Program-made: the position numbers and the translations under genes
Part shown: piece after piece, positions 1,848-43,358 of the stretch
Layout of the letters: every line of letters begins with the position of its first letter
How positions within the stretch are numbered: position 1 is the stretch's first letter
Origin: Nocardia ignorata NBRC 108230
GTDB lineage: Bacteria > Actinomycetota > Actinomycetes > Mycobacteriales > Mycobacteriaceae
DNA length: 64,000 nucleotides
Direction of reading: 5' to 3'
Assembly (NCBI RefSeq): GCF_001612905.1
Contig: NZ_BDBI01000010.1
Location: 1-64,000 of the forward strand
The notes under the pieces: generated by a model
The model's input: the letters and a program-made list of their open reading frames with translations, nothing else
The model's database searches: none
Told to the model about the DNA's origin: nothing

Positions 1848-1894
1848 GTCAAGATCGGTAGCGTTGGGTACCTTCGAGATCGGAGTTGGCAACA

Positions 1895-2653
1895 ATGCCG
1901 GTGGGAAAGGCGGGGGCCGCCGTGGATGCGGATATTGTAGACCAAGTGGATCGACCGAAACTGGCGTTGGATCGCGCCATTACGGGACCGAACGATCCTG
2001 TCGCCAAAATCGACGGAATAGCGCAGCTGATCCCCGGGGGCGAATGGAGTACCGACCTGCAGCGACGTCTGAAATCGGTGCAGAGGGAGATTGTTCTCGC
2101 CGTCTCCGACCCAATCCGGATGGAGCGTCGGTATCCGACAGCAGAATTGCTGGTACGCGATATGCTAACCGTGGGCAAACGGGTCCGGATATTAGTATCA
2201 CCCAAATACGCTGACAGCCGAGGCGAGCGCGCTCTACGCGCCGGATGCCCGTTGATCGACCGGATACGCGTCACCTACACCGACTTCCACAACGCGATGA
2301 TCGTCGATCGTCGCGAGGCCGTCGTATGGGCTTCTGCAGACGGGGCCCCGCGGGCGTATCTGTTCACCGGCAAGGTTCTGCCGGGCTCGATCGGGAAGTT
2401 TGTCACGCGGGCCTGGTCTGTGGGTCTTCCCCTACGTAACCATATGGAACTGCGGCGCAAGGACTTCGACTCCACCGCAATCACGGTGATGCGCTATCTC
2501 AACGCCGGGGTGACCGATGAGGTTGCGGCACGGCAGCTTTCAGTCTCGCCGCGCACCTACCGCCGGCACGTTGCCGACATCATGGCCCGCCTCGACACCA
2601 CCACCCGTTTTCAGCTAGGGGCGCGCGCGGTAGAACTGGGCCTATTGCACTGA
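1895..2653 (+). CDS. LuxR-type transcriptional regulator with PLD/TrmB-like sensor domain
   Basis: A 252-residue protein. The C-terminal 65 residues form a GerE/LuxR helix-turn-helix (V-T-D-E-V-A-A-R-Q-L-S-V-S-P-R-T-Y-R-R-H). Residues about 45-180 resemble the phospholipase-D-like fold used as a ligand or interaction domain in TrmB-type and some LuxR-type regulators: a V-R-I-L-V-S-P strand, an H-N-A-M-I-V-D strand and no catalytic HKD pair. ATG 1895 was chosen over TTG 1886 because GGAG sits nine bases before it. It precedes the carbapenam-type genes on the same strand, so it is probably their pathway-specific activator, which is an inference from position. A KstR-like palindrome upstream suggests a second layer of control. 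Confidence 0.8.
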   Translation: MPVGKAGAAVDADIVDQVDRPKLALDRAITGPNDPVAKIDGIAQLIPGGEWSTDLQRRLKSVQREIVLAVSDPIRMERRYPTAELLVRDMLTVGKRVRILVSPKYADSRGERALRAGCPLIDRIRVTYTDFHNAMIVDRREAVVWASADGAPRAYLFTGKVLPGSIGKFVTRAWSVGLPLRNHMELRRKDFDSTAITVMRYLNAGVTDEVAARQLSVSPRTYRRHVADIMARLDTTTRFQLGARAVELGLLH

Positions 2654-2898: not shown

Positions 2899-3666
2899 AT
2901 GTATGACATCCAAGAAATTGCCGAACAAGTGACGTTCTCGACGTCCAATTGGCGCGGTAAGTTCCAAGAAGCACTTGACAAGTTCGGCTTTGCAATCATC
3001 GAACCAGCCGATACAGATGACCATCCTATCCAGTTGGAGGACATCATGCTCCCGCTGGGCGATCCGGTCGAGTACGGATTCGGCACCAAGCTGGCTCTCG
3101 AACCACTGGAGAATTCGGTTAATCTGCAGTTCACCACCAAGGGAATGCGACTGCACGCGGACTCCACGTTCAATTCGGGGCCGTTGGTGAAGTACATCGG
3201 AATGCAGTGCCTGACCGCACCCGAGGTAGGCGGAGAAACGCTAGTGGCACGATCCTCGGCGTTTTTCGACAATGCTGCGGAAGATCTACTCAAGACGATG
3301 CGGAATATCGTCATCGAATACCGCAACCGCATCGGAGGATATTACAAGGACCGCGCGGAGGGTGATCACCCACGCCTGGCTCCGATCCAGGTCGACCCCG
3401 ATACGGGCGAGGAGAAGCTCGTCGTCGGATTCACCGACCCGAAGGATCCTATGCGAACCCACGACGCCACCGTCGTCGGATACGACGCCGATCAGAGCGC
3501 GGAGCTACTATGCAGAATCGAAGAGACACTGCATCTTCCGAGTGTGCTCTACCGACACCAGTGGCGGGTCGGCCAAATCGTGGTGCTGGACAATCGACGA
3601 GTTCTGCACGGACGAGCAGCATTTCCGAATCAGTCGCGCAAACTGATTCGGCTGTCGGTCGCCTGA
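2899..3666 (+). CDS. CarC-like Fe(II)/2-oxoglutarate-dependent oxygenase
   Basis: 255 residues of the TauD/clavaminate-synthase superfamily. The iron triad is His86-Ala-Asp88 and His237 (V-L-H-G-R), with Arg251 placed to bind 2-oxoglutarate. The layout follows Pectobacterium carbapenem synthase CarC as I recall it: G-D-P-V-E-Y-G-F-G early, H-A-D then a Gly-Gly-Glu-Thr loop, G-Y-Y, V-G-Y-D-A-D-Q and V-L-D-N-R-R-V-L-H before the C-terminus. CarC epimerises C5 and desaturates C2-C3 of the carbapenam. The gene starts the run that continues into CarA-like and CarB-like genes, which supports that role. TauD-type oxygenases are diverse and NRPS loci often carry hydroxylases of this fold, so amino-acid hydroxylation is the alternative. 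The locus has a second, clearly paralogous copy at 15266-16045. Confidence 0.75.
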   Translation: MYDIQEIAEQVTFSTSNWRGKFQEALDKFGFAIIEPADTDDHPIQLEDIMLPLGDPVEYGFGTKLALEPLENSVNLQFTTKGMRLHADSTFNSGPLVKYIGMQCLTAPEVGGETLVARSSAFFDNAAEDLLKTMRNIVIEYRNRIGGYYKDRAEGDHPRLAPIQVDPDTGEEKLVVGFTDPKDPMRTHDATVVGYDADQSAELLCRIEETLHLPSVLYRHQWRVGQIVVLDNRRVLHGRAAFPNQSRKLIRLSVA

Positions 3667-3679
3667 TGTCGAGGCCGAA

Positions 3680-4993
3680 ATGAAGAACTATCCCTCGGTG
3701 TCCTTGGAGGGCTGGATCACGCCCTTCGGACTGGCATTCGCCGATGCCGCCGATGCCGGCAGACTGACGGTCGAGGAATACGGCCGGGAGTGGCCCCTAC
3801 CCGCGGGCGGGCCGGACAGCTGCGGCACGATCGAGTGGAGCAACGACGCGGTCGTGGTCCGCACGAACCGGCTGAATCCGACGACGCTGTATTACTGGGT
3901 TCACCCCGATTCCGATCGCTTTCTTATCGGAACCGACCGCGCCGGGTTGCTCGCCCGCATCGTCGCCGCAACCGGGTCTCACACCGATCACCCGCCGTAC
4001 CCCATCGGTGCGGGGCGAACAGTGACGTTCTCGACCACCCATGGCGGCCTCACCGTCGAGGACACGGTAACCGCACGCTGGACGTCGGCTCCTATCTCCG
4101 GTGAGACCGCGCACGAGGCCGGGAACCGACAGATCGCGGCCCTGCGCCGCGAGATCGCCGCCGTCGGCGGACCGCGTCCGATCACGGTCGTGGTGTCGGG
4201 CGGGGTGGATTCGGGGCTGGTGGCGGCGCTGGCCGAGCAGGCGGGAATAGTCGACCATCTGGCGAGCCTGGGCACGCCTTGGGGCGACGAATACCCCGAG
4301 GCCGACGAACTCGGCGCCCACCTCGGTGTTCCGGTGCGACGAATCGCCTTGTCGGAGGAAGAGATTCTGCGGGCCCTGCCCGAAACCGTGCGTATGCTCG
4401 GCACCACTGACCGCGAAACCGTCGCGGCGGGAGTGAATCTCGTTGCCGTCTACCGACAGGGGACGATTCCCGCCGGGACCATTCTGACCGGTGTGGGCGC
4501 GGACCTCATCAATTCGGGAAACCGAGACGGCTCGGGCCCCGTCGCCGATATCCAGAAGGCAGTCGCTGAACGGCTGGCGGAGGCGGCGGCGAGTTCCGAA
4601 CTCACCGGTGTCGGAGCCGCGGTCCACGGATACGCACTACGACACATGTATTGGAATTCCTCGGTCGTTCAAGCGGCCTTGGATACCGCGCCCGAGGTCA
4701 TGCGGTACCGGGACCGGGAAAAGGGGCATATGCGCCTGGCCGCCGAGCAACTGGTGCCCGACAGCGTCGCGTGGCGGCCCAAACAGGCCTTGCATCATGG
4801 CAGCGGCGTGGAACGCAATCTCGACGCCGCGGTCGCACGACTCATCGGGGTGGAGCAGGTCGACGCCGAACGATTCTACAGGTTGATCGAGGCCCAGCTA
4901 GTCGAGGCGCTGCTCAAATCTCCGGACGGCCCTATCCATTCTGATGACTGTCTCAAGGCGGCGATTTCCGCCTATCTGATCGAAAACCAGTGA
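3680..4993 (+). CDS. CarA-like beta-lactam (carbapenam) synthetase, asparagine-synthase fold
   Basis: 437 residues. The C-terminal half is an asparagine-synthetase-B-type ATP-pyrophosphatase domain with the P-loop S-G-G-V-D-S-G at residues 173-179 and the conserved lysine at Lys368 (R-P-K-Q-A-L-H-H-G-S-G). The N-terminal half keeps the Ntn-like fold pattern, but the protein begins M-K-N-Y: there is no Cys2, so it cannot hydrolyse glutamine. This is the hallmark of beta-lactam synthetase and CarA, which adenylate a carboxylate and close a four-membered ring instead of making asparagine. It lies 13 bases after the CarC-like gene and 18 bases before the CarB-like gene. At 437 residues it is shorter than CarA (about 500), mainly in the N-terminal half. 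The Tyr-Glu dyad that separates beta-lactam synthetases from asparagine synthetases should be checked by alignment. Confidence 0.82.
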   Translation: MKNYPSVSLEGWITPFGLAFADAADAGRLTVEEYGREWPLPAGGPDSCGTIEWSNDAVVVRTNRLNPTTLYYWVHPDSDRFLIGTDRAGLLARIVAATGSHTDHPPYPIGAGRTVTFSTTHGGLTVEDTVTARWTSAPISGETAHEAGNRQIAALRREIAAVGGPRPITVVVSGGVDSGLVAALAEQAGIVDHLASLGTPWGDEYPEADELGAHLGVPVRRIALSEEEILRALPETVRMLGTTDRETVAAGVNLVAVYRQGTIPAGTILTGVGADLINSGNRDGSGPVADIQKAVAERLAEAAASSELTGVGAAVHGYALRHMYWNSSVVQAALDTAPEVMRYRDREKGHMRLAAEQLVPDSVAWRPKQALHHGSGVERNLDAAVARLIGVEQVDAERFYRLIEAQLVEALLKSPDGPIHSDDCLKAAISAYLIENQ

Positions 4994-5011
4994 CACGCTA
5001 AGGGGTTATAT

Positions 5012-5791
5012 ATGAGGCGAATCGAGATCGAGGATGTCGCGGGCGTGCGCCTCCTGACACTTACGCACGAAAAATACACCAATCCGATCGGCAAGCAGAC
5101 CGCTGCGGACCTGATGAAGGCCCTCGCCGAGGCCGATCGGGACGACGGGGTGAGCGCGGTCGTGGTCACCGGTGGACGCGATCGCTGTTTCAGCGCGGGA
5201 GGCGACTTCAACGAAGCACGCATGCTGTTGGACGACGACATCGTGGACGAAACCATCGCCTGGTGCACCGATATGTATCTGGCCGTGTTGAACTGCGGAA
5301 AACCCGCCGTCGCTGCTGTGGATCATCACGCCATCGGCCTCGGATTCCAGCTGGCGATGATGTTCGACTGGAAGATCATGTCGTCGCGGGCCGATTTCAT
5401 CATGCCCGAACTGGAGCACGGAATCGGCGCCTCGGTCGGCGCCACCGTGCTGACGACCACCTGCAGTTACGACGTTGCGCGCCACGTGATCATGTCGTGC
5501 CAACCGATCGGACCCGAGGCAGCGCTGCGTTACACCATGGTGGACGAGGTGTGCGAACCAGAGTTTCTGATCGATCGCGCCGTGGCCCGCGCCCGACGGC
5601 TAGGGAGTTACCCCCGCATCGCATTTGCCGGCACAAAACGCGTGTCCACTGAGCCCATGCGCACAGCGCTGCAGCGTACCCTCCCAGCCTCGCAGGCAGT
5701 TCACCGCAACGGGTTCAAGGCGAAGGCCATGCACAAACACTTCAGGCGTGTGCTCGGCACATCGGACGAGAAAGCGGTCGACGCGAATTGA
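5012..5791 (+). CDS. carB: Carboxymethylproline synthase (CarB/ThnE-type crotonase)
   Basis: 259 residues of the crotonase superfamily, closely matching CarB over its whole length: F-S-A-G-G-D-F-N-E, A-V-L-N-x-x-K-P, A-I-G-x-G-F-Q, M-P-E-L-x-H-G-I-G-x-S-V-G and a C-terminal H-F-x-x-V-L-G. Glu133 aligns with the catalytic Glu131 of CarB, and Gly64 with oxyanion-hole Gly62. The expected reaction condenses a malonyl-type CoA with pyrroline-5-carboxylate to give a carboxymethylproline. Two pocket residues differ: CarB Trp79 is Thr81 here and Met108 is Leu110. From memory, these are positions mutated to let CarB take alkylmalonyl-CoAs. Its stop overlaps the next start (TGATG), so it is translationally coupled to the NRPS. 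Confidence 0.88.
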   Translation: MRRIEIEDVAGVRLLTLTHEKYTNPIGKQTAADLMKALAEADRDDGVSAVVVTGGRDRCFSAGGDFNEARMLLDDDIVDETIAWCTDMYLAVLNCGKPAVAAVDHHAIGLGFQLAMMFDWKIMSSRADFIMPELEHGIGASVGATVLTTTCSYDVARHVIMSCQPIGPEAALRYTMVDEVCEPEFLIDRAVARARRLGSYPRIAFAGTKRVSTEPMRTALQRTLPASQAVHRNGFKAKAMHKHFRRVLGTSDEKAVDAN

Positions 5792-8700
5792 TGTCGTTGT
5801 ATCCGAACCTTCGTCGCATCGCCATACGGCGGCCCGATGCACCGGCACTGATCGACTTCGATAAAGAAGTCACCTCGTATGGCCGACTGCTCGCAACAAC
5901 AGACGCCATCGCTGAAACACTTTGTTCCGCTGCACATTCCGGCCACATACTGGGGATCGCGGTGGACGATCCCCTCGGGTTCGTCGCCACGTATTTCGCG
6001 GCGGCAAAGTGCAACCTGGTGACCATATTGTTGGATGGCCGATCGACATCGACGGACCTTGCGCGTATGGCGGCGAGATTCGACCTGGATCTTCTGGTTC
6101 GCGACGGCGACTCCGGGCCCGGGTCAATCTGTATCGAGAACGTCCGCACCGATGGGCGCAGGGCCCACGCCTACTGCTCCGGCGATTTCGTCGTGCACTG
6201 CACGTCGGGATCGACCGGCGCACCGAAGGGCATCGTGATGAGCCAGGCGGCGGTAGCCGCCCGCGTGCAATCCTGGAGCCGTGAGTGTGCGCTGCGACCG
6301 ACAGACGTGGTGCTGTGCGCTCTCCCGCTATGGCACGGCCATGGAATCGACGTCCTGACCCTACCGACCCTGCTGGCCGGCGCGACGGTCGTTTTCACTC
6401 GCGGGTCGCATCTGACCGCCCGGGGCTTGACGCGGGCGATCCACCACCATGCGGTCACGATCGTCAGTGGTCTGCCGGTGATGTATCAGATGCTCGTCGG
6501 CGCGCAAGGCGTGAACGCGTCGATGCTGTCGTCGTTGCGCCTAGCCCTCACCGGCAGCGCACCCATTTCCGCCGACACGCAGGTGCAATTCGCCGAGCGG
6601 TTCGGGCTTCCGCTCCGTCAGGGGTACGGTCTCGGCGAAATCGGTATCATCGCATGGGACTCCGAGTATGCCGGGCCCGGCATGATCGGCTTTCCGGTGC
6701 GCGATGTCGAGATCCGGTTGGAGCCGACCGACGACGAATCGGTGTTCGAACTCCTGGCGCGGGGACCATCGCTTGCTCGCGGCTACTACCGCGACCCCGA
6801 AGCCGAGCACTCAATGTTCGCTGACGGCTGGCTGCGTACCCACGACCTGATCGCGGTCGAAGCGAACGGCTGGTCGGTGCGGGGGCGCAAATCCACCTTC
6901 ATCAATGTAACCGGAAACAAGGTCGCGCCGATCGAGATCGAGGTCGCACTGCGCGCCTGTGCGGGCGTCGGCGACTGCGCGGTGGTCGGGGTGGACGACG
7001 GCGACGGCGGCGAGCAGGTCGCAGCGTTGGTCGTCGCGGACGGTTCTCGCGATGCCGAGGCGATTCGCCGACGGGTCGCGAGGCATCTGCGCCCATACCA
7101 GCTACCACAGCTGTATTCGTTCGCCGACGCCATACCGCGGACCGCTGTCGGGAAGACCGACTACGACGCAGTACGGCGAGCCGTCGAAAGGCTCGGGGCA
7201 GACCGGGATTTCATCCACGGGCGGCCAGCGGATAGTGCCGTCGAATGGGGCGACCGCCGCCTCACCTATGCCGAGCTCGAGAGTGCTGTCGCGGCCCTGG
7301 CCAATCGACTCATCACGCTGGCACCGCCGCGGACCGCGGTCCTCGTCCTGGGGCCTCTGTGTCCGGCCTATCTCGTCGGGCTGCTGGCGACCTGGCGGGC
7401 GGGGGCCGTGCCGGTGCCCGTCGATGCCGGGACGAGCGCGAATCGGTATGCCTGGCTGGAGCGGCGTCTGGGCCCGGCGGTGGTGATCAGCACTGACGTC
7501 ACCACAGTGGACCAGTATGCGGGAGCCGCCTCCGGCGCCGGAGAGATAGTGCTCGATTCGGACACCGGTGCGATCGTGATCGATTCTGTTCCCGAAACTG
7601 CCTGCACTGCATCTACTTTTACTGACCCAGATGCGAGTTATGTGATTCCGACCTCCGGATCCACAGGCGAACCCAAGGCCATCGTCGGCAGTCGCCGGGG
7701 ATTGCGGGACTTCCTCGCCTGGTTCAGCAAAGAATTCGGACTGACTAAAGCCGACCGTTGCGCGGCGCTGACCCGGGTGAACTTCGATCCCTCGCTGCGC
7801 GAGCTGCTCGGGGTGCTCGGGGTCGGTGGCACCGTGGTACTACCGGCGATCGACGCACGATCGGATCTATCACGCCTGGCCGGCCACCTGATCGACACGC
7901 GGCCGACCATAGTGTTCCTCGTGCCCTCGGTCGCGACCCGACTGGCCGCAGAACCACGGCTGGCGGGCACGGTGCTCACCGAACTTCGTTTGATCTTCTG
8001 CGCGGGCGAGGTGCTGGGCAGACGGGTCGTCGAGCAGTGGACGGTGCTGGCGCCCAACGCCGAGATCGTCAACTTGTATGGACAGACCGAGGCCACCCTC
8101 GCCCAGCTGTACCGTCGGAATGCGCAGGACGTCACCACCCACCCGATACCGGTAGGTGTGCCACGGCCGGGCATCGAGGTCTCGGTAGACCACGACGGCT
8201 CCGGGATCGGCGAGGTGTATCTGGCCTCCGAATCACCCGCGCTTGGGGTTCTGGGCCTCGAATCCGGTGCCGTTCACCGGATCGTTCCAATCCCGAATCC
8301 GCTGCCCACCGGCGATCTCGGATACCGTACCGGCGGAGGCGAGCTCGTCGTCCTGGGCCGGGCGGGCAACGACATCAAGTACAGCGGTCGGCGAATCTCG
8401 TTCCACGAGTTCGTCGATGCCGTCGTGCAACTCCCGGGGGTCGTGCAGTGCGTAGTAGTCGATCGAGATGGGCCGCAGGTCTTTGTCTCCACCGATCGCG
8501 CCGAGAACATGCGGACCTCGATCGAGAAGCTCGGCCGGCGTTTCGACCTGCCGCGGTTCGTCGTCCACCTGCGGTCGGACCTGCCCTCGCTGCGCAATGG
8601 CAAGGTGGACCGCCGCGCACTGCTAGCCTCTTTGAACGACACCACGACGGCAGCCCCCACACCAGAGGCGACCGCAGGCGACGGATCCGAGCTCGAACAG

Positions 8701-10182
8701 CAGCTATGTGCGCTACTGGGGATGGAGCACGCGGACATCGGCTTCGTCGAGGTCGGGGTGACCTCCCTGGACATGCTCGCGGCGCTCACGACAATAAACC
8801 GCACGTACGGGGTCACACTCACCACGCCCGAATGCTTCGGCCTACGCACTACCCGTGAGCTGGCCAAGGAGATCCGCGCCCGCCGAACCGACGATGTGCC
8901 GACTCCCAGCGAGCAACCCGTCGGGATTGACACGGCGCGGGACTACCCGCTGTCAACCCGTCAGGTGGCGTACATCCGGATCTGCATGCCGGGCGGCAAC
9001 GCCAACTGGTGCAATTTGTCTCGGGAGATTCGATTCGACCGGCCGTGGACTAGCAGGGCTTTCGAGGAGGCACTGCGTACGCTGCTCGAGCGTCACGATG
9101 CGCTCGGGCTCGCTCTCACCCCGGATTGGCAGCGCCAAACCTTCACTCCAGCAGCAGAACTGACACCTTCGGTCGAGGTCGTCGATCTGGCGGTCGCGAC
9201 GTCCGCCCCAGAATTTCGAGACCGTGTAGAATCCGCCCGTGCGGCCCTGGTGAGCAGGTTGATCGATCCCTCCGCGCCGCCTCCGCTGCGGGTGGTCTTG
9301 GTACGCGGGACCGACGGGTGCTCGGCAATCGTCGCCGCGCACCACCTGTTCGTTGATGGCCCTGGCATGGATGTGCTGGCCGCCGATCTTCGTGCGGCGG
9401 TGTCCGGAAGACCGCGTTCCGTGAGCGCCGGCACGGGTACCTATCGCGCTTACTGCCTGGCAACGGCGCGATCGGACCGGCGGGGCGTATCCGCTACCTA
9501 TTGGCGGGATTTGCTCACCGATGTCGATCAGGTCCACCTGCCCGAGTCCGAGGACGGCGATGGGGCATCCGGAGAATTGCTCTCCCTGCCGTTCGGGGTG
9601 CTCCACACACGGGGAATTCACCAGATCGCACAGACATTGGGGGTGTCGGCATTTGCGGTGGTGCTCGCAGCCTTCGAGGCAGCCGTGTCCACCATCTTCG
9701 ATGTTCGGGGGCTGCCGATCGTTGTCGCCAATCAGCAGCGGGCGGGCGTAGATGCGTCCGTGGTCGGCATGTTCACCGGCACCCTCATCGTCCGGGCGAC
9801 CGGTTCGGCGTCGCTGCCGGATGCCGTCAAGGCTCTCGCCGATCAGCTGGCGGCGGGGACCGAGCATAGCGATTGGGAGTTCGACCAGCGCATTGCCGAT
9901 CTGAACCTGCCCGCGACCGACTACTTCCCCCTGTCCACGGTCCTGTTCAACCAGCGTCCCGTGCCGCGAGGAACCCCGGTACGCGAGCTCGGGTCGTGGC
10001 GACCACGCTCGCTGGGACGGTCACTGCGCTACCAGCTGCAGGGCGAGCTTCAAATGTCCGGGGCCGACATGGTCATGACGTACTACTACCGCCGGGGAAT
10101 CGGCGGCGCCGAGATCATCCACCGCGTTCACCGCACACTGCTGTGGGCTATCGGTGCAGCACAGGAGACGATTCATGCCTGA
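5791..10182 (+). CDS. NRPS protein, domain order A-A-T-C
   Basis: 1463 residues with two successive adenylation domains, a carrier domain and a condensation domain. A1 (about 1-460) is of acyl-CoA-ligase type: T-S-G-S-T-G near residue 138 and an unusual Y-G-L-G-E near 278 where Y-G-x-T-E is normal. A2 (about 465-950) has T-S-G-S-T-G-E-P-K near 620 and Y-G-Q-T-E near 762; its pocket reads D-P-R-L-F-A-L-L-A-K, which I cannot assign. The carrier serine is Ser992 (V-T-S-L-D). The C domain carries an intact His1184-His1185-x3-Asp1189-Gly. ATG 5791 overlaps the CarB-like stop and replaces TTG 5788. A protein opening with two A domains and ending in C suggests A1 activates an acid in trans, perhaps onto the free carrier at 13906. 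Confidence 0.88.
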   Translation: MSLYPNLRRIAIRRPDAPALIDFDKEVTSYGRLLATTDAIAETLCSAAHSGHILGIAVDDPLGFVATYFAAAKCNLVTILLDGRSTSTDLARMAARFDLDLLVRDGDSGPGSICIENVRTDGRRAHAYCSGDFVVHCTSGSTGAPKGIVMSQAAVAARVQSWSRECALRPTDVVLCALPLWHGHGIDVLTLPTLLAGATVVFTRGSHLTARGLTRAIHHHAVTIVSGLPVMYQMLVGAQGVNASMLSSLRLALTGSAPISADTQVQFAERFGLPLRQGYGLGEIGIIAWDSEYAGPGMIGFPVRDVEIRLEPTDDESVFELLARGPSLARGYYRDPEAEHSMFADGWLRTHDLIAVEANGWSVRGRKSTFINVTGNKVAPIEIEVALRACAGVGDCAVVGVDDGDGGEQVAALVVADGSRDAEAIRRRVARHLRPYQLPQLYSFADAIPRTAVGKTDYDAVRRAVERLGADRDFIHGRPADSAVEWGDRRLTYAELESAVAALANRLITLAPPRTAVLVLGPLCPAYLVGLLATWRAGAVPVPVDAGTSANRYAWLERRLGPAVVISTDVTTVDQYAGAASGAGEIVLDSDTGAIVIDSVPETACTASTFTDPDASYVIPTSGSTGEPKAIVGSRRGLRDFLAWFSKEFGLTKADRCAALTRVNFDPSLRELLGVLGVGGTVVLPAIDARSDLSRLAGHLIDTRPTIVFLVPSVATRLAAEPRLAGTVLTELRLIFCAGEVLGRRVVEQWTVLAPNAEIVNLYGQTEATLAQLYRRNAQDVTTHPIPVGVPRPGIEVSVDHDGSGIGEVYLASESPALGVLGLESGAVHRIVPIPNPLPTGDLGYRTGGGELVVLGRAGNDIKYSGRRISFHEFVDAVVQLPGVVQCVVVDRDGPQVFVSTDRAENMRTSIEKLGRRFDLPRFVVHLRSDLPSLRNGKVDRRALLASLNDTTTAAPTPEATAGDGSELEQQLCALLGMEHADIGFVEVGVTSLDMLAALTTINRTYGVTLTTPECFGLRTTRELAKEIRARRTDDVPTPSEQPVGIDTARDYPLSTRQVAYIRICMPGGNANWCNLSREIRFDRPWTSRAFEEALRTLLERHDALGLALTPDWQRQTFTPAAELTPSVEVVDLAVATSAPEFRDRVESARAALVSRLIDPSAPPPLRVVLVRGTDGCSAIVAAHHLFVDGPGMDVLAADLRAAVSGRPRSVSAGTGTYRAYCLATARSDRRGVSATYWRDLLTDVDQVHLPESEDGDGASGELLSLPFGVLHTRGIHQIAQTLGVSAFAVVLAAFEAAVSTIFDVRGLPIVVANQQRAGVDASVVGMFTGTLIVRATGSASLPDAVKALADQLAAGTEHSDWEFDQRIADLNLPATDYFPLSTVLFNQRPVPRGTPVRELGSWRPRSLGRSLRYQLQGELQMSGADMVMTYYYRRGIGGAEIIHRVHRTLLWAIGAAQETIHA

Positions 10183-13100
10183 ATTCGCGTCGGTCACGCT
10201 GCCCTCTACTATCGCCCTCGGACCGATTCAGCGCGCCTATCTGGTCGGGGACCAAGAGGGGCTGGAACTACGCAGCCCGGCCAGGTACTACCTGGCTTGT
10301 GAGCTGAACACCGAACTCGTAGACGGACTACAGCAGCGCGTCGATCGTCTGATCGGCACCCACCCCATCCTGCGCACCCGCATCGGTGCGGACCTAACAC
10401 CGACCCCGATGCCTGAGGATGCCAGGCTCACCGTCGTAGTTCGCGAGACCACACCGCAGACCTTCACCACCGTGGACGCTGAGGTTGCCGACGAATTTAG
10501 GTGCGACACTCTGGAATTCGATGACTGGCCTCAGATGCGGATCACCGTTGTCCGCTCCGATAAGCGAGCCCGGCTGCACATCGTCTACGCCATGTGGCTG
10601 ATGGACGGGGTCGGGCTGGCACGATTTCTGACCGATTTGGTGGCGACGGATCATCCGCAAACCCCGAAGGCGACAGTCGCGCCCGCACCACCCGAAGGCC
10701 CCCGCGCGCGCGACGAAAAATACTGGCGCGCAATCGCAACTACCTTGGCCGAGGCTGCGGATCTGCCCTTGCGGCCGGGCTGGCGACAGGCCGGCCGCGC
10801 CGTCGAGCATCGCATCGTGCGCGTCGACCCCGAGGCGGGGCAAGCGCTTGCAGCCACGGCACGGGCGCACGGGCTGACGGTCCCGATGATTTTCCTCACC
10901 GTATACGGGACGCTGCTGGGTTCCATGGGCGGCGGCCGAGCTCACACCATCACCCTGGTTCAACCGCGGCACCGATGCCAGGACGAAGGTGTGGCAATCA
11001 GCAACTGTGGAACCACCGTGCCGCTGCAGATTCCAGCGGCGGAGGGGCGCGACTTCGTCACCCTCGCGCGCGAAGTCCAGAGCTGCTATCTGGAGCATTC
11101 CCTGCATTCGTCGTTGAGCGGAATTGATATTGCCCGCCTGACGGGCCGACCCGCCGACCGGCGGCGGCTGGCCCACCCCTTCGCGTTCACCGCGGTCGAG
11201 CTCGACAGCGAGCGCGAAAGGGCTTCAGGGCTGCAACGAGATTGGGATAGCGTTCAGATGCGCGTCCCGCAGGTACTGCTCGACCATCAGGTCGGCGTCG
11301 ATGCTGACGGCTCGATACTGCTCGGTTTCGACTGGCGCACAGATGCGTTCGACGATGGATTCGTCGGCGATCTCGTCGCGCAGTACACCCGGATTGTGCA
11401 GCGCCTGGCGAGCGATGACAAGACCTGGACTCGTCCACCACAGCGACCGGCATTCCTGGCGCATGACACACTGCATCGTCGCGTGCTGCACACTGCCGAG
11501 CGCATGCCTGACGCGATTGCAGTTCGTGACGCCGATGGGCTGCTCTCCTACGCCGACCTGGTCGACGCCGCCGCAGATATCGCGCATCGTCTGGTGAGTG
11601 TCGGAGCCGAGGTCGGCGAACGGGTCGGGATCCACATGGCCCGTGGGCGCGGTCAGATCGCGGCCGCGCTCGGAACGCTCATGGCGGGCTGTGTGTTCGT
11701 ACCGCTCGATCGCGGTCTGCCGCCCGGCCGTCTCGACCGCATCACCCGCCAGGCGAGCCTGCGCTCGGTCGTGACCGACGCCGACGAGACCATGATCGAC
11801 GGGTGGCTGATGCGTGGAGTCACGGCAGTCACGGTTTCTGATCCGCCAACGGCGCATGCGAACCCTCGTGTACAGGACCGTGGCTCGGCAGATGTCGCGT
11901 ACGTGATCTTCACGTCCGGATCGACCGGAGAGCCGAAAGGCGTCGTGATCCGACACACCGCCGTGCTGAACACTATCGAGGCGGTCAACAGTCTGATCGA
12001 TCTCACACCCTCGGATTCCGTTCTCGCGGTGTCCTCGCTCGGATTCGACCTGTCGATCTACGACATCTTCGGACCCTTGCTCGTCGGTGCGACAGTCGTA
12101 ATGCTGTCGGAGGACGCTGCTCGAAAGCCGTCCGCATGGACCAGGTCGGTGTCTGAACACGGCGTGACTGTCTGGAACTCGGCGCCGGCCCTAGCCGGGC
12201 TCCTGAGCGAAGAAGGTGTCGCACTCCCGGGCGTCCGCGTCTATCTGCTCAGTGGCGACTGGATTCCCCAACAGCTGCCCGCAGCGCTCCAGCAAATCTC
12301 CGCCGATGCCGAGGTGATAAGTCTCGGCGGAGCGACCGAGGGATCGATCTGGTCGATCTACCATCGCGTCACACCGGACGACAGGATAGGACGGTCAATT
12401 CCGTACGGAAGACCATTGCCTGGGCAGAACATTCTGGTCTTGGACGACCAGCGTCGACCCATCCCTGACTGGCATGTCGGCGATATTTACATCGCGGGCC
12501 GCGGTGTCGCCGACGGCTACCTCGATGACCCCGACCGGACTGCGGCCGCCTTCATCGACGATCCCGAGTACGGGTGGATCTATCGGACCGGCGATCGCGG
12601 GCGGCGCGATCGCCACGGCGTGGTCGAATTCCTCGGCCGCTTGGACAGTCAGGTGAAGGTCAACGGGCACCGAGTCGAGCTAGGTGAGATCGAATCCGTG
12701 CTCGACACGCTTGAATTCGTCCGACGCAGCGCCGTCTGCGTCGGCGACGACGGTGGCGGAGTCGCGGCATATGCCGTCATCTCAGAGCTGGCACCGCCAA
12801 CCTGGGCGTCGCAAGCCATAACTGTGCTGCGCGACGAACTGCCCTCCTACATGGTTCCCTATGCCCTCGTCGCGGTGAACGAGATTCCGTTGACCAGCAA
12901 CGGAAAGATCGATCACCAGCGGCTACGAGCGATCGCACCCACAGCTGCCGATGCGGCCGACACAGCAAAACCGCCCGGAGGCGGCCTGCACGTGCAGGAG
13001 GTGGCCGCGTGCTGGACCGAGGTGCTGGGCCGCGCACCCGGCCGGGACAGCTTTTTCGAATCAGGCGGCGGCTCACTAGATGCTATTCGGCTGCTGTCGT

Positions 13101-13909
13101 TGCTGCGGACGAAGCTGGGCTACGACATTCCGTTCGGAATATTCGTGAGCGATCCCACGGTGTCGGGCCTGGCCGGGCTGTGCGCGAATGCGCGGCAGGC
13201 GACGGAATCGGCGGTGTGGAGTTTCGCGCCCCGGAGCGTGGATCGCCCACGCGGTCGCGTGGTCTTCTTTCCGCCCGTCGGTGGTGGTGTCTCGTGCTAT
13301 TCCGAGCTGATCCACAGTGTGGCCGGCGATCTCGATGTGCGTGTGCTCGGGTTCGATAGCCCGTTAGGTGATCAGCCCGCGATGGATGAAATCGCCGCGG
13401 CCTGCCTGCGTGAACTCGCCGCGCACGACTCCGACACGGATGTGGTGTTCGTCGGTTGGTCGTTCGGCGGTGCCCTCGCCGTCGAGGCCGCGCACAAAGC
13501 CCCATATCCAGTGCGACGTGTCGTCGCGATCGACACCCCCGTCTCAACGGCCGCGCGGCGATGCGACGATGACGAGGCCGCTTTGCTGGCGGGATTCGTC
13601 GGTGACGTCCAGCAGTCGGGGGGCGTGGCTGTCCGCGCGGCGGACGTGCGTACCGATCAGACCCTGCGCCGCAGATTTGACGTCTACAAGCAGAACATGG
13701 TGGCGCTGCGCGAGTGGCATCCCCCCGTCGGCATACCGCACGTCGTCGAACTACGAGCCGCCGAATATCCGGCCGAGCCTGATCCGCGAGCGTGGAGCCG
13801 AGTGGCGGACAGTCCACCGAGCATCCTGCTAGGGGGAGGACATTTCGACGTATTCGAGCCCGACAACGCCAGGCGCATCCAGGACGAGATCGAAAGTGCA
13901 TTCCAATGA
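10175..13909 (+). CDS. NRPS protein, C/Cy-like domain followed by A(Cys)-T-TE
   Basis: 1244 residues. ATG 10175 is preferred because AGGAG precedes it; it overlaps the upstream gene. The first domain (about 1-430) looks like a heterocyclisation (Cy) domain outside its core, but the core reads A-M-W-L-M-D-G near residue 138, so it has neither HHxxxDG nor the Cy motif DxxxxDxxS. The A domain (G-S-T-G-E-P-K-G near 580, G-G-A-T-E-G-S-I-W near 718) gives the ten-residue code D-L-Y-N-L-S-L-I-W-K, which I recall as the cysteine code of siderophore Cy modules. The carrier serine is Ser967. The C-terminal type I thioesterase has G-W-S-F-G-G with Ser1096 and a late His in G-G-H-F-D. The protein should load cysteine, join it to the upstream intermediate and release the product. 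Confidence 0.88.
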   Translation: MPEFASVTLPSTIALGPIQRAYLVGDQEGLELRSPARYYLACELNTELVDGLQQRVDRLIGTHPILRTRIGADLTPTPMPEDARLTVVVRETTPQTFTTVDAEVADEFRCDTLEFDDWPQMRITVVRSDKRARLHIVYAMWLMDGVGLARFLTDLVATDHPQTPKATVAPAPPEGPRARDEKYWRAIATTLAEAADLPLRPGWRQAGRAVEHRIVRVDPEAGQALAATARAHGLTVPMIFLTVYGTLLGSMGGGRAHTITLVQPRHRCQDEGVAISNCGTTVPLQIPAAEGRDFVTLAREVQSCYLEHSLHSSLSGIDIARLTGRPADRRRLAHPFAFTAVELDSERERASGLQRDWDSVQMRVPQVLLDHQVGVDADGSILLGFDWRTDAFDDGFVGDLVAQYTRIVQRLASDDKTWTRPPQRPAFLAHDTLHRRVLHTAERMPDAIAVRDADGLLSYADLVDAAADIAHRLVSVGAEVGERVGIHMARGRGQIAAALGTLMAGCVFVPLDRGLPPGRLDRITRQASLRSVVTDADETMIDGWLMRGVTAVTVSDPPTAHANPRVQDRGSADVAYVIFTSGSTGEPKGVVIRHTAVLNTIEAVNSLIDLTPSDSVLAVSSLGFDLSIYDIFGPLLVGATVVMLSEDAARKPSAWTRSVSEHGVTVWNSAPALAGLLSEEGVALPGVRVYLLSGDWIPQQLPAALQQISADAEVISLGGATEGSIWSIYHRVTPDDRIGRSIPYGRPLPGQNILVLDDQRRPIPDWHVGDIYIAGRGVADGYLDDPDRTAAAFIDDPEYGWIYRTGDRGRRDRHGVVEFLGRLDSQVKVNGHRVELGEIESVLDTLEFVRRSAVCVGDDGGGVAAYAVISELAPPTWASQAITVLRDELPSYMVPYALVAVNEIPLTSNGKIDHQRLRAIAPTAADAADTAKPPGGGLHVQEVAACWTEVLGRAPGRDSFFESGGGSLDAIRLLSLLRTKLGYDIPFGIFVSDPTVSGLAGLCANARQATESAVWSFAPRSVDRPRGRVVFFPPVGGGVSCYSELIHSVAGDLDVRVLGFDSPLGDQPAMDEIAAACLRELAAHDSDTDVVFVGWSFGGALAVEAAHKAPYPVRRVVAIDTPVSTAARRCDDDEAALLAGFVGDVQQSGGVAVRAADVRTDQTLRRRFDVYKQNMVALREWHPPVGIPHVVELRAAEYPAEPDPRAWSRVADSPPSILLGGGHFDVFEPDNARRIQDEIESAFQ

Positions 13910-14160
13910 GCGAAGCCGACATCAAGCAGGTGATCGCCGACGAGCTCGGTGCTCGCGGCTACCAGATCGGCCCCGATGAATTCGCCGCGGACCTCATCAG
14001 CGTCGGCGTCAATTCTGTGAATCTGGTCCGAGTGCTCACCACACTCGAAGAGCAGTACAACATCGAATTCGAGCCTACCGGATTCTTTCGCGAGCCGGTG
14101 ACCGTCGTCCGCCTCGCCCAGAAGATCATCGGGCTCCTGGCGCAGAGTGCGAGCGCATGA
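13906..14160 (+). CDS. Free-standing acyl/peptidyl carrier protein
   Basis: 84 residues with the carrier fold and a phosphopantetheine serine at Ser37 in G-V-N-S-V-N-L. It overlaps both neighbours by ATGA, so it is coupled to the NRPS upstream and the flavoprotein downstream. A separate carrier in an NRPS locus usually holds one building block while a tailoring enzyme acts on it. The adjacent flavoprotein or the second oxygenase is the natural candidate, and the orphan A1 domain at the start of the 5791-10182 protein is a candidate loader. Confidence 0.85.
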   Translation: MSEADIKQVIADELGARGYQIGPDEFAADLISVGVNSVNLVRVLTTLEEQYNIEFEPTGFFREPVTVVRLAQKIIGLLAQSASA

Positions 14161-15269
14161 CGGCCATCGAGTACGACCACGACGCGCGCCTGACCGCCCG
14201 GGCTTTCGATGTCGCGGAGCTGGCCGCTGACCGGGCCGAAGAGGCCGAATCGGCGCGCACTCCGGATATCACAGTGGTCGACGCGGTCGTCGACGCGGGA
14301 TTCGCACGCCATTTCGCGCCGCCGGAATTCGCCGGCGCTGGCGGATCGTTCACCGCACTGGCCCGGGCGGCGGCCACCGTCGGCGCCCGATGCCCGGCCA
14401 CGGCATGGTGTGCGGTGCTGGCGGCCCTCATGACACGAGGAGCGGGTGCCCTGTCGGTCGAAGGCCAGCGACGCCTGTGGGGCGACAGACCCGACGTGCT
14501 CATTGCCGGTGGCGTGCTGCCAAAGGGCATCGTATCCCCGGGAGACGGCGGCTGGATATTGTCGGGGGTGTGGCCCACCGTGTCGGCCTGCGAATGCGCG
14601 GACTGGGTGCTACTGGCCGCCATCGTCGAGTCCGGCGGCGAGCCGACAGGACGAATATGCCTTGTGCCGCAGTCAGATATCCGCATCGAACGGACGTGGG
14701 ACAGCACCGGGATGCTCGCCACTGGGAGCCACACCGTGGTCGCCGAGCAGCTGTTCGTTCCCGCGTCGCTGACGTTTCCGTCGAGCGCGCTCACCGAGAC
14801 CGACTCTCCGCCGGTCGGCCCCGACGGTAGAGCGGTGCCCATGCTGGCGGTCAATTCCCTCGCCTTCTCTATGCCGATATTGGGCGCGGCCCGCGGAGCG
14901 CTGCGACTGTGGCAGCAACTGGTCGCGACTCGGGACCTCACCTACATCGCACCGGTGTATGCCCGCGCGTCGAGTGAGATCGACGCGGCGGGATTGATTC
15001 TCGAGCGGGTCGCCTACCTCGCCGATACCGCATCGACCTTCAGTCGAGCCGACGTTGTCCGCAACAGGCGCGACTGCGCCTTCGCCGCAGGGCTTCTGGT
15101 CGATGCCGTGGATCGGCTATTCCGCGCCTCGGGCTCTGGCGGGCACAGCACCAGTGCCCCACTGCAGCGACTGTGGCGCGACGTCCACACCGCGGGATCG
15201 CATGCCGCACTCCAATTCGGCCCCATCGCAACGGCCTACACCCAACACACCTTGGGCACGAGTTCATGA
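14157..15269 (+). CDS. Acyl-CoA-dehydrogenase-fold flavoprotein (dehydrogenase or group D monooxygenase)
   Basis: 370 residues of the acyl-CoA dehydrogenase fold. The C-terminal pattern L-Q-R-L-W-R-D-V-H-T-A-G-S-H is characteristic of the HsaA/DszC-like group D flavin monooxygenases and carrier-bound dehydrogenases. The usual acyl-CoA dehydrogenase catalytic glutamate is not obvious. No flavin reductase gene is in the operon, so as a monooxygenase it would need one in trans. Immediate coupling to the free carrier protein suggests oxidation or desaturation of a carrier-bound acyl or aminoacyl group. The substrate is not predictable from sequence. Confidence 0.72.
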   Translation: MTAIEYDHDARLTARAFDVAELAADRAEEAESARTPDITVVDAVVDAGFARHFAPPEFAGAGGSFTALARAAATVGARCPATAWCAVLAALMTRGAGALSVEGQRRLWGDRPDVLIAGGVLPKGIVSPGDGGWILSGVWPTVSACECADWVLLAAIVESGGEPTGRICLVPQSDIRIERTWDSTGMLATGSHTVVAEQLFVPASLTFPSSALTETDSPPVGPDGRAVPMLAVNSLAFSMPILGAARGALRLWQQLVATRDLTYIAPVYARASSEIDAAGLILERVAYLADTASTFSRADVVRNRRDCAFAAGLLVDAVDRLFRASGSGGHSTSAPLQRLWRDVHTAGSHAALQFGPIATAYTQHTLGTSS

Positions 15270-16045
15270 AGGGCATGCCTGTGCAGACAACTACCGATAT
15301 GAGGGAATTGGCCGAGCACGCGCGCTGCGACCGCAGTCCTCGGTCCCGCTACCGCGACAAGCTCGAGCAGTACGGGTTCGTCGTGCTCGAGTCAGACGGC
15401 AATGAGTGCCTGACGCTCGAGGACATCATGGCTTCCCTCGGCGAGCCGGTCGAATACGGATACGGCACGAAACTGATCCAGGAGCAGCGTCCGCAGACCA
15501 ACAACTCGCAGTTCCGAACCGGCGCGATTCCGATGCACGCTGACGGGTTCTTCAATGCCGACGGCGTGCGCTATATCGGACTGGAGTGTCTGGAGGCTCC
15601 ACCCACAGGAGGCGAGACACTCATCGCCACCAGCAGCTCATTCTTCGCCTCCGCTCCGAGCGACCTCGTGGCGAGACTACGCGATATCGAGATCGAGTAC
15701 CGCTCGAATGTCTCCGGATTCTACAACGAGCGGCCGGACGGAAATCTCGTGGTCGCTCCGATCCAGGTGGATCCGGTCACGGGCGGCGATGCACTGCGCA
15801 TGGGAGTGGACTACCCGGAGGACCCGACACGCAACTTCCAAGCATCGGTGGTCGGCTACACCAGGAAACAGAGCCTCGCGCTATTCGAACAGCTCGATAC
15901 AGTGTTCTGCCGCCCAGAGGTCACCTATGCGCACCGATGGGAGGTGGGCCAGATCCTCATCATGGACAACTTGCGCGTGGTGCACGGTAGATCCGCCTAC
16001 CCGGTTGACGCACCCAGAAAGATGGTACGCATCTCGGTTTCCTGA
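15266..16045 (+). CDS. Second CarC-like Fe(II)/2-oxoglutarate-dependent oxygenase
   Basis: 259 residues. ATG 15266 overlaps the upstream stop (ATGA) and is preferred over a longer frame. It is a paralogue of the 2899-3666 protein: the shared signatures run L-E-D-I-M, G-x-P-V-E-Y-G-(F/Y)-G-T-K-L, H-A-D, G-G-E-T-L, A-P-I-Q-V-D-P, V-V-G-Y, and a final D-N-x-R-V-(L/V)-H-G-R. The iron ligands are His91, Asp93 and His240. Two oxygenases of one lineage in one locus suggest an internal duplication with divided labour, for example epimerisation/desaturation by one and hydroxylation by the other. Thienamycin biosynthesis also uses two such enzymes (ThnG and ThnQ). Confidence 0.8.
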   Translation: MKGMPVQTTTDMRELAEHARCDRSPRSRYRDKLEQYGFVVLESDGNECLTLEDIMASLGEPVEYGYGTKLIQEQRPQTNNSQFRTGAIPMHADGFFNADGVRYIGLECLEAPPTGGETLIATSSSFFASAPSDLVARLRDIEIEYRSNVSGFYNERPDGNLVVAPIQVDPVTGGDALRMGVDYPEDPTRNFQASVVGYTRKQSLALFEQLDTVFCRPEVTYAHRWEVGQILIMDNLRVVHGRSAYPVDAPRKMVRISVS

Positions 16046-18701: not shown

Positions 18702-19501
18702 AACAAAGGTTGTCTGAAATGCGGCTGACAGATCAGCAGATCCGAAGTTACGAATCCGATGGATTTCTCGTGCTGGAATCCGTGTTCAACGAGTACGAAG
18801 TCGCTTCGCTGCTCGATGCGATGGACACCGATGACGCCGAGGGCCCGCATCGGATCCTCGACGCGGAGGCGAACGAGCTCGTGGCCCTGTACGGCTCGCA
18901 TCAACGTATCGACGTTTTCGCCGATCTCGTTCGCTCGCCACAGCTGCTGCACCCGGCCCGCACACTCGTGGGTGGGGACGTATATGTCTACCAGTTCAAG
19001 ATCAATGTGAAGCCCGCTTTCGGCAAGGACCGAGTGTCATGGCATCAGGATTATACTGCGTGGAAGATCGCCGACTGGCTGCCGTCTGCACGACTGGTCA
19101 ATGCCGCGCTGCTACTAGACGAGGCAACGGAGTTCAACGGCCCGTTGATCTTCGTGCCCGGCTCGCATCAGACAGGCAGTCTGCGTGACAAGCGCGACAA
19201 GGCATCGGCTTCGGAGCTGCACCTCGACCCGGAGGACATCGCCCTGCAGCCGCAGAACGTCGCCCACCTGGTCGATAAGTTCGGGATGCGTAGCGTGCAG
19301 GCGCCGGCCGGATCCGTGGTCTTGTTCTCCCCGGAGATCGTTCACGGGTCGGCGCCGAACATGTCGCCGACCCGGCGACGGCTGCTCATCGCAACCTACA
19401 ACTCCTGCTCCAACCTTCCCCGGACCGCCGAACCGCGCGCCAGTTACCTGGTCGGCGACGATGTGCGCCCGCTGGAATCACCTGTGTGGAGCCAGAAGTG
19501 A
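18698..19501 (+). CDS. Phytanoyl-CoA dioxygenase (PhyH) family oxygenase
   Basis: 267 residues starting at ATG 18698, which overlaps the P450 stop (ATGA). The iron ligands are His116-Gln-Asp118 (W-H-Q-D) and His216 (V-H-G-S), with an arginine-rich stretch downstream to bind 2-oxoglutarate. The family catalyses hydroxylation, desaturation or halogenation of aliphatic carbons. With two CarC-like enzymes this makes three Fe/2OG oxygenases in the locus. A plausible role is hydroxylation of the C6 alkyl side chain, comparable to C8 hydroxylation in thienamycin; that is an inference from context only. Confidence 0.87.
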   Translation: MKQRLSEMRLTDQQIRSYESDGFLVLESVFNEYEVASLLDAMDTDDAEGPHRILDAEANELVALYGSHQRIDVFADLVRSPQLLHPARTLVGGDVYVYQFKINVKPAFGKDRVSWHQDYTAWKIADWLPSARLVNAALLLDEATEFNGPLIFVPGSHQTGSLRDKRDKASASELHLDPEDIALQPQNVAHLVDKFGMRSVQAPAGSVVLFSPEIVHGSAPNMSPTRRRLLIATYNSCSNLPRTAEPRASYLVGDDVRPLESPVWSQK

Positions 19502-35894: not shown

Positions 35895-35983
35895 CTAGAC
35901 ACCACCCCTAGCCCTGCAACAACCTTTCACTGCGAACATCTACGCGTCCTCCTCGGTTCTTCGTGCAAATCCGCCACCGCGCA

Positions 35984-37854: not shown

Positions 37855-37890
37855 CTCCCACCTCGCTCTCGGCTTCTTCCTGTAGTCGGC

Positions 37891-38913: not shown

Positions 38914-38953
38914 CTGTTCTCCTCTAGCTTCGATAGTCGGTCGGCGAGATGGA

Positions 38954-43336: not shown

Positions 43337-43358
43337 CCAAACCCTCCCTACCTGCCGT

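What the first reader, a model, noticed from the sequence alone, without database searches (positions are those of the whole stretch)
2899..5791. CarC-, CarA- and CarB-like genes together: a candidate carbapenem-type beta-lactam locus in a Nocardia-like actinomycete
Seen: three adjacent genes encode an Fe/2OG oxygenase with CarC-like layout, an asparagine-synthase-fold protein without the Ntn cysteine, and a crotonase with near-complete CarB motifs (AGGDFNE, MPELxHGIG). Established: these three activities suffice for the simple carbapenem in Pectobacterium and recur as the core in Streptomyces cattleya. Inference: the locus makes a carbapenam-derived product. Coupling to a cysteine-type NRPS and a free carrier is not part of any carbapenem locus I can recall.
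Basis: partly seen in the sequence, partly recalled or inferred. Interest (0 to 1): 0.93.

Follow-up and report, generated by a model that had tools for sequence, protein, structure and literature searches.

The report
Carbapenem-type pathway fed by ethylmalonyl-CoA
A compact gene cluster found in Nocardia and Streptomyces puts carbapenem-type enzymes in one unbroken row with a crotonyl-CoA carboxylase/reductase and a cysteine-type peptide assembly line, and is predicted to build an ethyl-bearing beta-lactam joined to cysteine, in the way enzyme engineers have combined such parts in the test tube.

Summary
The three genes are real and open a tightly packed 15-gene row (2899-24259), likely one operon. 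The crotonase is a carboxymethylproline synthase: it groups with CarB and ThnE, away from enoyl-CoA hydratases. The synthetase has the beta-lactam synthetase fold and keeps the catalytic Lys and Glu, but the dyad Tyr is Val. At the position where engineered CarB variants (W79F/A/Y/S) take ethylmalonyl-CoA, this crotonase has Thr; all five reference enzymes checked have Trp. Thr, Val and CCR travel together: Thr pairs with Val in 10 of 10 linked pairs, and CCR is linked to 8 of 13 Thr-type, 0 of 11 Leu-type and 0 of 26 Trp-type crotonases. A Streptomyces lineage nested among Thr/Val rows has Leu/Ile and no linked CCR. Best reading: a natural CCR - carboxymethylproline synthase - beta-lactam synthetase route to a 6-ethyl carbapenam, in place of thienamycin's radical-SAM methylases, with a Cy-A(Cys)-T-TE line likely adding a cysteine-derived ring. 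No activity or product is shown. My paper searches found no description of it.

The parts
1886..2653 (+). LuxR-type HTH protein (GerE domain), likely cluster regulator
   Evidence: PF00196 3e-5; homologue at the same place in 2 of 6 other loci, 69% and 55% identity
2899..3666 (+). oxy1: TauD/TfdA-type Fe/2OG oxygenase, CarC superfamily
   Evidence: PF02668 1.7e-28; HxD...H...R conserved; 6 of 6 other loci
3680..4993 (+). ASL: beta-lactam-synthetase-like enzyme; dyad Tyr replaced by Val272, Glu307 and Lys368 kept, no Ntn Cys
5012..5791 (+). CMPS: carboxymethylproline synthase; Thr81 where CarB has Trp79
5791..10182 (+). NRPS1: acyl-CoA-ligase-like domain - A2 - T1 - C1 (the ligase is a separate ORF in 5 of 6 other loci)
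   Evidence: domains; active-site motifs conserved in the 6 loci aligned; split seen
10175..13909 (+). NRPS2: Cy-like - A(Cys, DLYNLSLIW) - T2 - TE
   Evidence: A-code residues the same in the 6 loci aligned, except Leu or Met at one position; the N-terminal domain's only PDB hits at E<=1e-5 are heterocyclization domains
13906..14160 (+). free acyl carrier protein (84 aa, GVNSVNL serine)
   Evidence: annotated acyl carrier protein in S. decoyicus
14157..15269 (+). ACAD: HsaA-like flavin monooxygenase / acyl-CoA dehydrogenase family
   Evidence: NF045629 1e-48 (166 bits, below its cutoff of 450), PF08028 5.2e-27
15266..16045 (+). oxy2: second TauD/TfdA-type Fe/2OG oxygenase
   Evidence: PF02668 6.2e-29; motifs conserved; 6 of 6 other loci
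16066..17499 (+). MFS exporter (DHA2/LmrA-like)
   Evidence: below the LmrA cutoff; 5 of 6 other loci
17496..18701 (+). cytochrome P450
   Evidence: PF00067 8e-30; 6 of 6 other loci
18698..19501 (+). PhyH-type Fe/2OG oxygenase, 31% matches at two places of the thienamycin region; Nocardia loci only
   Evidence: PF05721 4.4e-33; tblastn to L038; 3 of 6 other loci
19498..20610 (+). zinc alcohol dehydrogenase; Nocardia loci only
   Evidence: 3 of 6 other loci
20607..21050 (+). methylmalonyl-CoA epimerase family (possibly an ethylmalonyl-CoA epimerase)
   Evidence: TIGR03081 126.8 bits, above cutoff 114.95; 2 of 6 other loci
21088..22410 (+). CCR: crotonyl-CoA carboxylase/reductase, likely ethylmalonyl-CoA source
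   Evidence: TIGR01751 551.7 bits, above cutoff 378.55; 5 of 6 other loci; only copy in this genome at E<=1e-60
22430..24259 (+). FadE-type acyl-CoA dehydrogenase, possible crotonyl-CoA supply
   Evidence: below all cutoffs; 2 of 6 other loci, N. salmonicida (cut by the contig end) and G116

Best explanation
This gene row likely makes a 6-ethyl carbapenam-type beta-lactam by feeding ethylmalonyl-CoA from its own crotonyl-CoA carboxylase/reductase into a carboxymethylproline synthase that has Thr in place of a conserved pocket Trp, and then would join it to cysteine on a peptide assembly line. Inferred steps: (1) FadE, CCR and the epimerase supply ethylmalonyl-CoA; (2) the CMPS decarboxylates it and adds it to pyrroline-5-carboxylate, giving 6-ethyl-carboxymethylproline; (3) the beta-lactam-synthetase-like enzyme, with Val in place of the dyad Tyr, adenylates the arm that carries the ethyl group and closes the beta-lactam; (4) the 2OG oxygenases, P450 and flavoenzyme oxidise the core, perhaps on the free carrier protein; (5) A2-T1-C1 and Cy-A(Cys)-T2-TE couple the acid to cysteine and close a thiazoline; (6) the MFS pump exports it. 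Shown: gene content, packing, conservation, active-site residues, trees and the three-way association of Thr, Val and CCR. Not shown: any enzyme activity, co-transcription or the product.
For: CMPS identity: CarB 5.6e-64; 62 CMPS rows split from 5 ECHs at 100/99. Pocket residue: of 50 database CMPS hits with the column filled (51 hits less one fragment), the Trp79 equivalent is Trp in 26, Thr in 13, Leu in 11; Trp also in CarB, ThnE, AttD, the Acinetobacter enzyme and Pantoea CarB. PMC6542682 (passages, section 9): CarB W79F/A/Y/S variants take ethylmalonyl-CoA (there with methylated aldehyde partners), were coupled to Ccr, and (6R)-6-ethyl-t-CMP is converted 75% by CarA. Association: CMPS and ASL rows linked by equal contig length pair Thr-Val 10, Leu-Ile 3, Leu-Tyr 2, Leu-Phe 1, Trp-Tyr 2 of 18 (which entered 32 of 51 CMPS and 30 of 45 ASL hits); CCR is linked to 8 of 13 Thr, 0 of 11 Leu and 0 of 26 Trp rows (against the 119 listed CCR rows with a contig length). 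Loci read directly: 6 with CCR are all Thr/Val; 1 without CCR anywhere in its genome (at E<=1e-60) is Leu/Tyr. Trees: Val+Ile clade 100/97, Ile nested in it 99/97; the seven Leu Streptomyces-type rows (100/99) nest among Thr rows. CCR lies 37 bp after the preceding gene of the row. Thienamycin region: 3 CxxxCxxC ORFs and no CCR; here: 0 of 17 proteins with CxxxCxxC.
Against: The dyad Tyr of beta-lactam synthetases is missing in this synthetase. No beta-lactamase or penicillin-binding protein family showed up in the 30 window proteins scanned with Pfam (not every ORF was scanned). oxy1 and oxy2 are not specifically CarC. The first Asp of the Cy motif is Ala in all 6 loci aligned. The association counts share ancestry, so the Fisher p of 0.002 is not a proper probability; in the CMPS tree the Thr rows are not one resolved clade, and at least 4 changes among Trp, Thr and Leu are needed. 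CCR linkage goes by the longest contig of a 90% protein cluster, so links can be missed in either class, and only the best 120 of 638 CCR hits were listed. Five Thr rows had no linked CCR, three of them on contigs of 73 kb, 92 kb and 1.34 Mb. CarA with its Tyr in place accepts a 6-ethyl substrate, so Tyr-to-Val is not strictly needed; Thr was not among the W79 replacements named in the passages read.
Confidence: 0.55

Rival explanations
1. The CMPS product is not closed to a beta-lactam: with the dyad Tyr gone, the synthetase joins the carboxymethyl arm to another amine, and the pathway makes an ethyl-carboxymethylproline peptide with a thiazoline.
For: Tyr is Val, Ile or Phe in 24 of the 36 ASL rows put in the tree; R. 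fascians AttE and the Acinetobacter homologue show neither Tyr nor Glu in the alignment, so relatives tolerate dyad loss; the A2 code has Arg at position 239 that could bind a side-chain carboxylate (inference); no resistance gene found.
Against: Glu and Lys are kept in all 44 full-length rows; the position covaries with the CMPS residue that bears on the malonyl-derived substituent, as expected if that arm is the adenylated one; Tyr is kept in locus G083, which has the same core genes.
Confidence: 0.22
2. CCR feeds something else (the free acyl carrier, or general metabolism) and the CMPS uses malonyl- or methylmalonyl-CoA; the Thr is a neutral change.
For: A methylmalonyl-CoA-epimerase-family gene adjoins CCR; CCR is the only copy in this genome at E<=1e-60, so it could also serve metabolism; the rows are related, so drift plus ancestry is possible; five Thr rows had no linked CCR.
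Against: No polyketide synthase domain was found in the cluster proteins scanned; S. novaecaesareae has a second CCR elsewhere (53% identical), so the cluster copy is extra there; Leu-for-Thr, Ile-for-Val and lack of a linked CCR coincide in a nested lineage.
Confidence: 0.15
3. A plain CarABC-type carbapenem pathway, with the NRPS belonging to a separate product.
For: CMPS, synthetase and 2OG oxygenase are adjacent as in the carABC-type set of Pantoea At-9b.
Against: All genes from 2899 to 24259 overlap or lie within 37 bp, and the NRPS, carrier, flavoenzyme, second oxygenase and P450 stay with the three genes in 6 of 6 other loci; the CMPS differs at position 79 from the five car-, thn- and att-type CMPSs checked.
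Confidence: 0.08

Closest known systems
Pectobacterium/Pantoea carABC simple carbapenem locus
   Same: CMPS, AsnB-fold synthetase and TauD-type oxygenase adjacent; CMPS 38% to Pantoea CarB
   Different: No NRPS or carrier annotated and no CCR found in the 16.7-kb Pantoea stretch; CMPS has Trp79; synthetase has the Tyr
Thienamycin cluster of Streptantibioticus (Streptomyces) cattleya
   Same: tblastn matches to CMPS (31%), synthetase (33%) and PhyH oxygenase (31%, two places)
   Different: Three CxxxCxxC radical-SAM-like ORFs and no CCR in the 36.7-kb stretch, against CCR and no CxxxCxxC protein here. The record is unannotated: gene names, and that the C6 chain there comes from radical-SAM methylation, are recalled
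Engineered Ccr + CarB W79 variant + CarA cascade (PMC6542682)
   Same: Ethylmalonyl-CoA from Ccr, changed position 79, 6-ethyl-CMP products, carbapenam closure
   Different: That is a test-tube cascade with mutant CarB and wild-type CarA; here Thr and Val occur naturally and an NRPS follows
Rhodococcus fascians att locus and Acinetobacter plasmid locus
   Same: CMPS, synthetase, TauD oxygenase and adenylate-forming ligase in a row
   Different: No NRPS annotated and no CCR found in the stretches read; neither Tyr nor Glu of the dyad aligned; ArgJ in both and ArgG/ArgH in R. fascians
Cysteine NRPS modules (HMWP2/Irp2, bacillamide BmdB)
   Same: Cy-A(Cys)-T order; the N-terminal domain's only PDB matches are Cy domains
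   Different: First Asp of the Cy motif is Ala; preceded by a C domain on NRPS1

Membership tests
Carboxymethylproline synthase (CarB/ThnE) | Groups with CarB/ThnE, not with enoyl-CoA hydratases | tested here: met
   100/99 split from 5 ECHs of the same genome; the tool warns that the ECH rows are long branches
Carboxymethylproline synthase (CarB/ThnE) | CarB Gln111, Glu131, His229 equivalents | tested here: met
   Q, E and H in the window protein
Carboxymethylproline synthase (CarB/ThnE) | Makes carboxymethylproline from P5C and a malonyl-CoA | not testable with these tools
   needs enzyme assay; a change at Trp79 is compatible, since CarB W79 variants are active (PMC6542682)
Beta-lactam/carbapenam synthetase | Fold | tested here: met
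Beta-lactam/carbapenam synthetase | Tyr of the Tyr-Glu dyad | tested here: not met
   Val272; hence described as beta-lactam-synthetase-like, not filed as a member
Beta-lactam/carbapenam synthetase | Glu of the dyad and the catalytic Lys (Lys443) | tested here: met
   Glu307 and Lys368; kept in all 44 full-length rows; the Lys region of one fragment (P0049) does not align
Beta-lactam/carbapenam synthetase | No Ntn nucleophile Cys | tested here: met
   starts MKNYPSV
Beta-lactam/carbapenam synthetase | ATP-dependent beta-lactam closure | not testable with these tools
   needs enzyme assay
CarC | Orthology to CarC rather than other TauD enzymes | tested here: inconclusive
   27% to Pantoea CarC, 1.5e-18; three other TauD-type chains score above CarC in PDB; no tree made
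Thienamycin-type complex carbapenem cluster | Cobalamin/radical-SAM methylases | tested here: not met
   CxxxCxxC in 0 of 17 cluster and flanking proteins
Crotonyl-CoA carboxylase/reductase | TIGR01751 above curated cutoff | tested here: met
   551.7 bits against 378.55
Cysteine heterocyclization NRPS module | Cys A-domain code (DLYNLSLIW, recalled) | tested here: met
   Leu or Met at one code position; positions assigned by eye against recalled GrsA numbering
Cysteine heterocyclization NRPS module | Cy motif DxxxxDxxS (recalled) | tested here: not met
   first Asp is Ala in 6 of 6 loci aligned; second Asp kept; the Ser kept in 4 of 6

The most novel reading that the evidence does not exclude
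Nature evolved the same solution that enzyme engineers built: a crotonyl-CoA carboxylase/reductase wired into a carbapenem pathway, with the carboxymethylproline synthase pocket (Trp to Thr) and the beta-lactam synthetase pocket (Tyr to Val) opened together, and both changed again where CCR was lost. The product is a new beta-lactam class: a 6-ethyl carbapenam or carbapenem whose acid is built into a cysteine-derived thiazoline by an NRPS.
Probability: 0.4. Interest if true: 0.88.

Novelty: new variant of a known kind. Interest (0 to 1): 0.72.

Why it matters
Carbapenems are last-line antibiotics, and thienamycin-type members carry a two-carbon chain at C6 that is added by radical-SAM methylases (recalled). 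A natural CCR-based route would be a second, simpler solution, and would hand engineers ready-made enzymes for 6-ethyl carbapenams. The linked changes in two active sites give a direct test of which residues set substrate choice, and of whether the Tyr of the Tyr-Glu dyad is essential. A carbapenam joined to a cysteine NRPS would be a beta-lactam scaffold that turned up in none of my paper searches.

Tried and rejected
Enoyl-CoA hydratase: rejected. Asparagine synthetase: rejected on scores and fold ranking; the deep ASL tree with beta-lactam synthetase, CarA and ThnM has long branches that meet and even puts AsnB beside Pantoea CarA, so it does not place the family. Chance adjacency: rejected. 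Thienamycin-type cluster: rejected. A search for more Leu/Ile loci in the order of G216 found only G216 itself (1 of 391 genomes), so lack of CCR in that lineage rests on contig-length linkage alone. Pseudomonas-type synthetase relatives (P0036-P0048) keep the Tyr, but their neighbourhoods could not be reached. What A2 activates, and what the acyl-ligase domain and free carrier do, could not be settled. Papers: no description of this cluster in the listings; the library lacks most subscription journals. Searches (dyad papers; att locus) gave papers of which I saw passages only: PMC13060819, PMC12130866 and PMC7002392, and for PMC12482188; none describes this cluster in the passages seen. PMC2833280 and PMC137491 on the dyad are not held, so the roles of Tyr348, Glu382 and Lys443 are recalled.
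Full report
What is there. The three reported ORFs are intact and at the stated places. They open a run of 15 genes from 2899 to 24259 in which neighbours overlap or lie at most 37 bp apart, likely one operon: TauD oxygenase, beta-lactam-synthetase-like enzyme (ASL), carboxymethylproline synthase (CMPS), NRPS1 (acyl-CoA-ligase-like, A2, T1, C1), NRPS2 (Cy-like, A for Cys, T2, TE), free carrier, HsaA-like flavoenzyme, second TauD oxygenase, MFS pump, P450, PhyH oxygenase, zinc dehydrogenase, methylmalonyl-CoA-epimerase-family protein, crotonyl-CoA carboxylase/reductase (CCR), and a FadE-type dehydrogenase. A LuxR-type regulator lies upstream. The genome is in the same genus as G097, which is Nocardia salmonicida NBRC 13393 by its 116022-base contig.

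Distribution. A close ASL (E below 1e-126) is found in 4 of 150 genomes of the genus including this one; 38 more have only weak matches, 2.3e-13 or worse. It is in 2 of 70 and 2 of 394 genomes drawn from the genus and family of S. novaecaesareae (the same two), and on a linear plasmid of S. decoyicus. In the six other loci read, oxy1, ASL, CMPS, both NRPS parts, carrier, flavoenzyme, oxy2 and P450 are present in 6 of 6; MFS and CCR in 5 of 6; PhyH and zinc dehydrogenase in the 3 Nocardia loci only; the epimerase-family protein in 2. The ligase domain is a separate ORF in 5 of 6.

The crotonase is a CMPS. Its best solved relative is CarB (5.6e-64). In a tree of 67 rows it lies in a group with CarB, ThnE, R. 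fascians AttD and an Acinetobacter homologue, split from five enoyl-CoA hydratases of its own genome by a 100/99 branch; the hydratases are long branches. CarB Gln111, Glu131 and His229 are kept.

The link that explains the changes. [quoted passage not shown] At that position the window CMPS has Thr81. Of 50 database CMPS hits with the column filled, 26 have Trp, 13 Thr and 11 Leu; CarB, ThnE, AttD, the Acinetobacter enzyme and Pantoea CarB have Trp. Linking CMPS and ASL hits by equal contig length, Thr goes with Val in 10 of 10 pairs, Leu with Ile, Tyr or Phe in 6 of 6, and Trp with Tyr in 2 of 2 (32 of 51 CMPS and 30 of 45 ASL hits entered). CCR is linked to 8 of 13 Thr rows, 0 of 11 Leu rows and 0 of 26 Trp rows. 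In loci read directly, the six with CCR are all Thr/Val and the one without is Leu/Tyr. The ASL tree puts Val plus Ile in one clade (100/97) with the seven Ile rows nested inside (99/97), next to the Val row of Streptomyces sp. 1114.5, a strain name that also bears a CCR hit. The CMPS tree puts seven Leu rows (100/99) inside Thr rows, but does not resolve the Thr rows as one clade, and needs at least 4 changes in all. So the two pockets seem to have changed together with the gain of CCR, and again in a lineage where no linked CCR was seen. Limits: shared ancestry; linkage by the longest contig of a 90% protein cluster, which can miss links in any class; only the best 120 of 638 CCR hits listed; and five Thr rows without a linked CCR, three on contigs of 73 kb, 92 kb and 1.34 Mb.

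Reading. CCR would supply ethylmalonyl-CoA, CMPS would make 6-ethyl-carboxymethylproline, and the ASL would close the beta-lactam on the arm that carries the ethyl group; that its changed position covaries with the CMPS pocket is the main reason to think it acts on that arm. The thienamycin region shows three CxxxCxxC ORFs and no CCR; this cluster shows CCR and no CxxxCxxC protein among 17. The A domain of NRPS2 carries the cysteine code (recalled) in all 6 loci aligned, with Leu or Met at one position, and the only solved relatives of its N-terminal domain are heterocyclization domains, so a cysteine-derived thiazoline is likely, though the first Asp of the Cy motif is Ala. A2-T1 has no upstream condensation domain, so its substrate would start the chain; that this is the bicyclic acid is inference.

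Against. The Tyr loss, the lack of a recognised resistance gene among the 30 proteins scanned with Pfam, the weak case for a true CarC and the untested activities keep confidence moderate. The finding is a new variant of the carbapenem kind with a directly testable prediction.

Noticed in passing
L050 7959-12043 (R. fascians pFiD188) and L049 4646-8952 (Acinetobacter plasmid p10FS3-1-1): CMPS, synthetase, TauD oxygenase and adenylate-forming ligase sit in a row in both, with neither dyad residue of the synthetase aligned; suggests the att-locus compound is built by a carboxymethylproline-type pathway.
   Followed up: partly
window 24783-25637: HsaD-like alpha/beta hydrolase after a 523-bp gap; homologues (83% and 65% identity) lie upstream of the cluster in G116 and G083.
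   Followed up: no
window 34698-45664 (- strand): A second run of biosynthetic-looking genes: ATP-grasp-like, FAA hydrolase, GDSL lipase, luciferase-like monooxygenase, M3 peptidase, TauD, DegT aminotransferase, NAD epimerase.
   Followed up: no
L035 (S. decoyicus NZ_CP108348.1, 80385-121647): The cluster lies on a linear plasmid beside ACP, ketosynthase III, PLP enzymes and a large NRPS, so it may move between strains.
   Followed up: no
proteins P0036-P0048: Synthetase relatives named from Pseudomonas and one Gloeotrichia (33-43% identity) keep Tyr, Glu and Lys; their gene neighbourhoods are unknown here.
   Followed up: no
window 3-326: WD40-like repeat ORF (by eye) running off the window's left end.
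   Followed up: no
L051 6456-11015 (Pantoea At-9b plasmid pPAT9B01): A carABC-type set followed by proline dehydrogenase and a 2Fe-2S protein, as in a simple carbapenem locus.
   Followed up: partly
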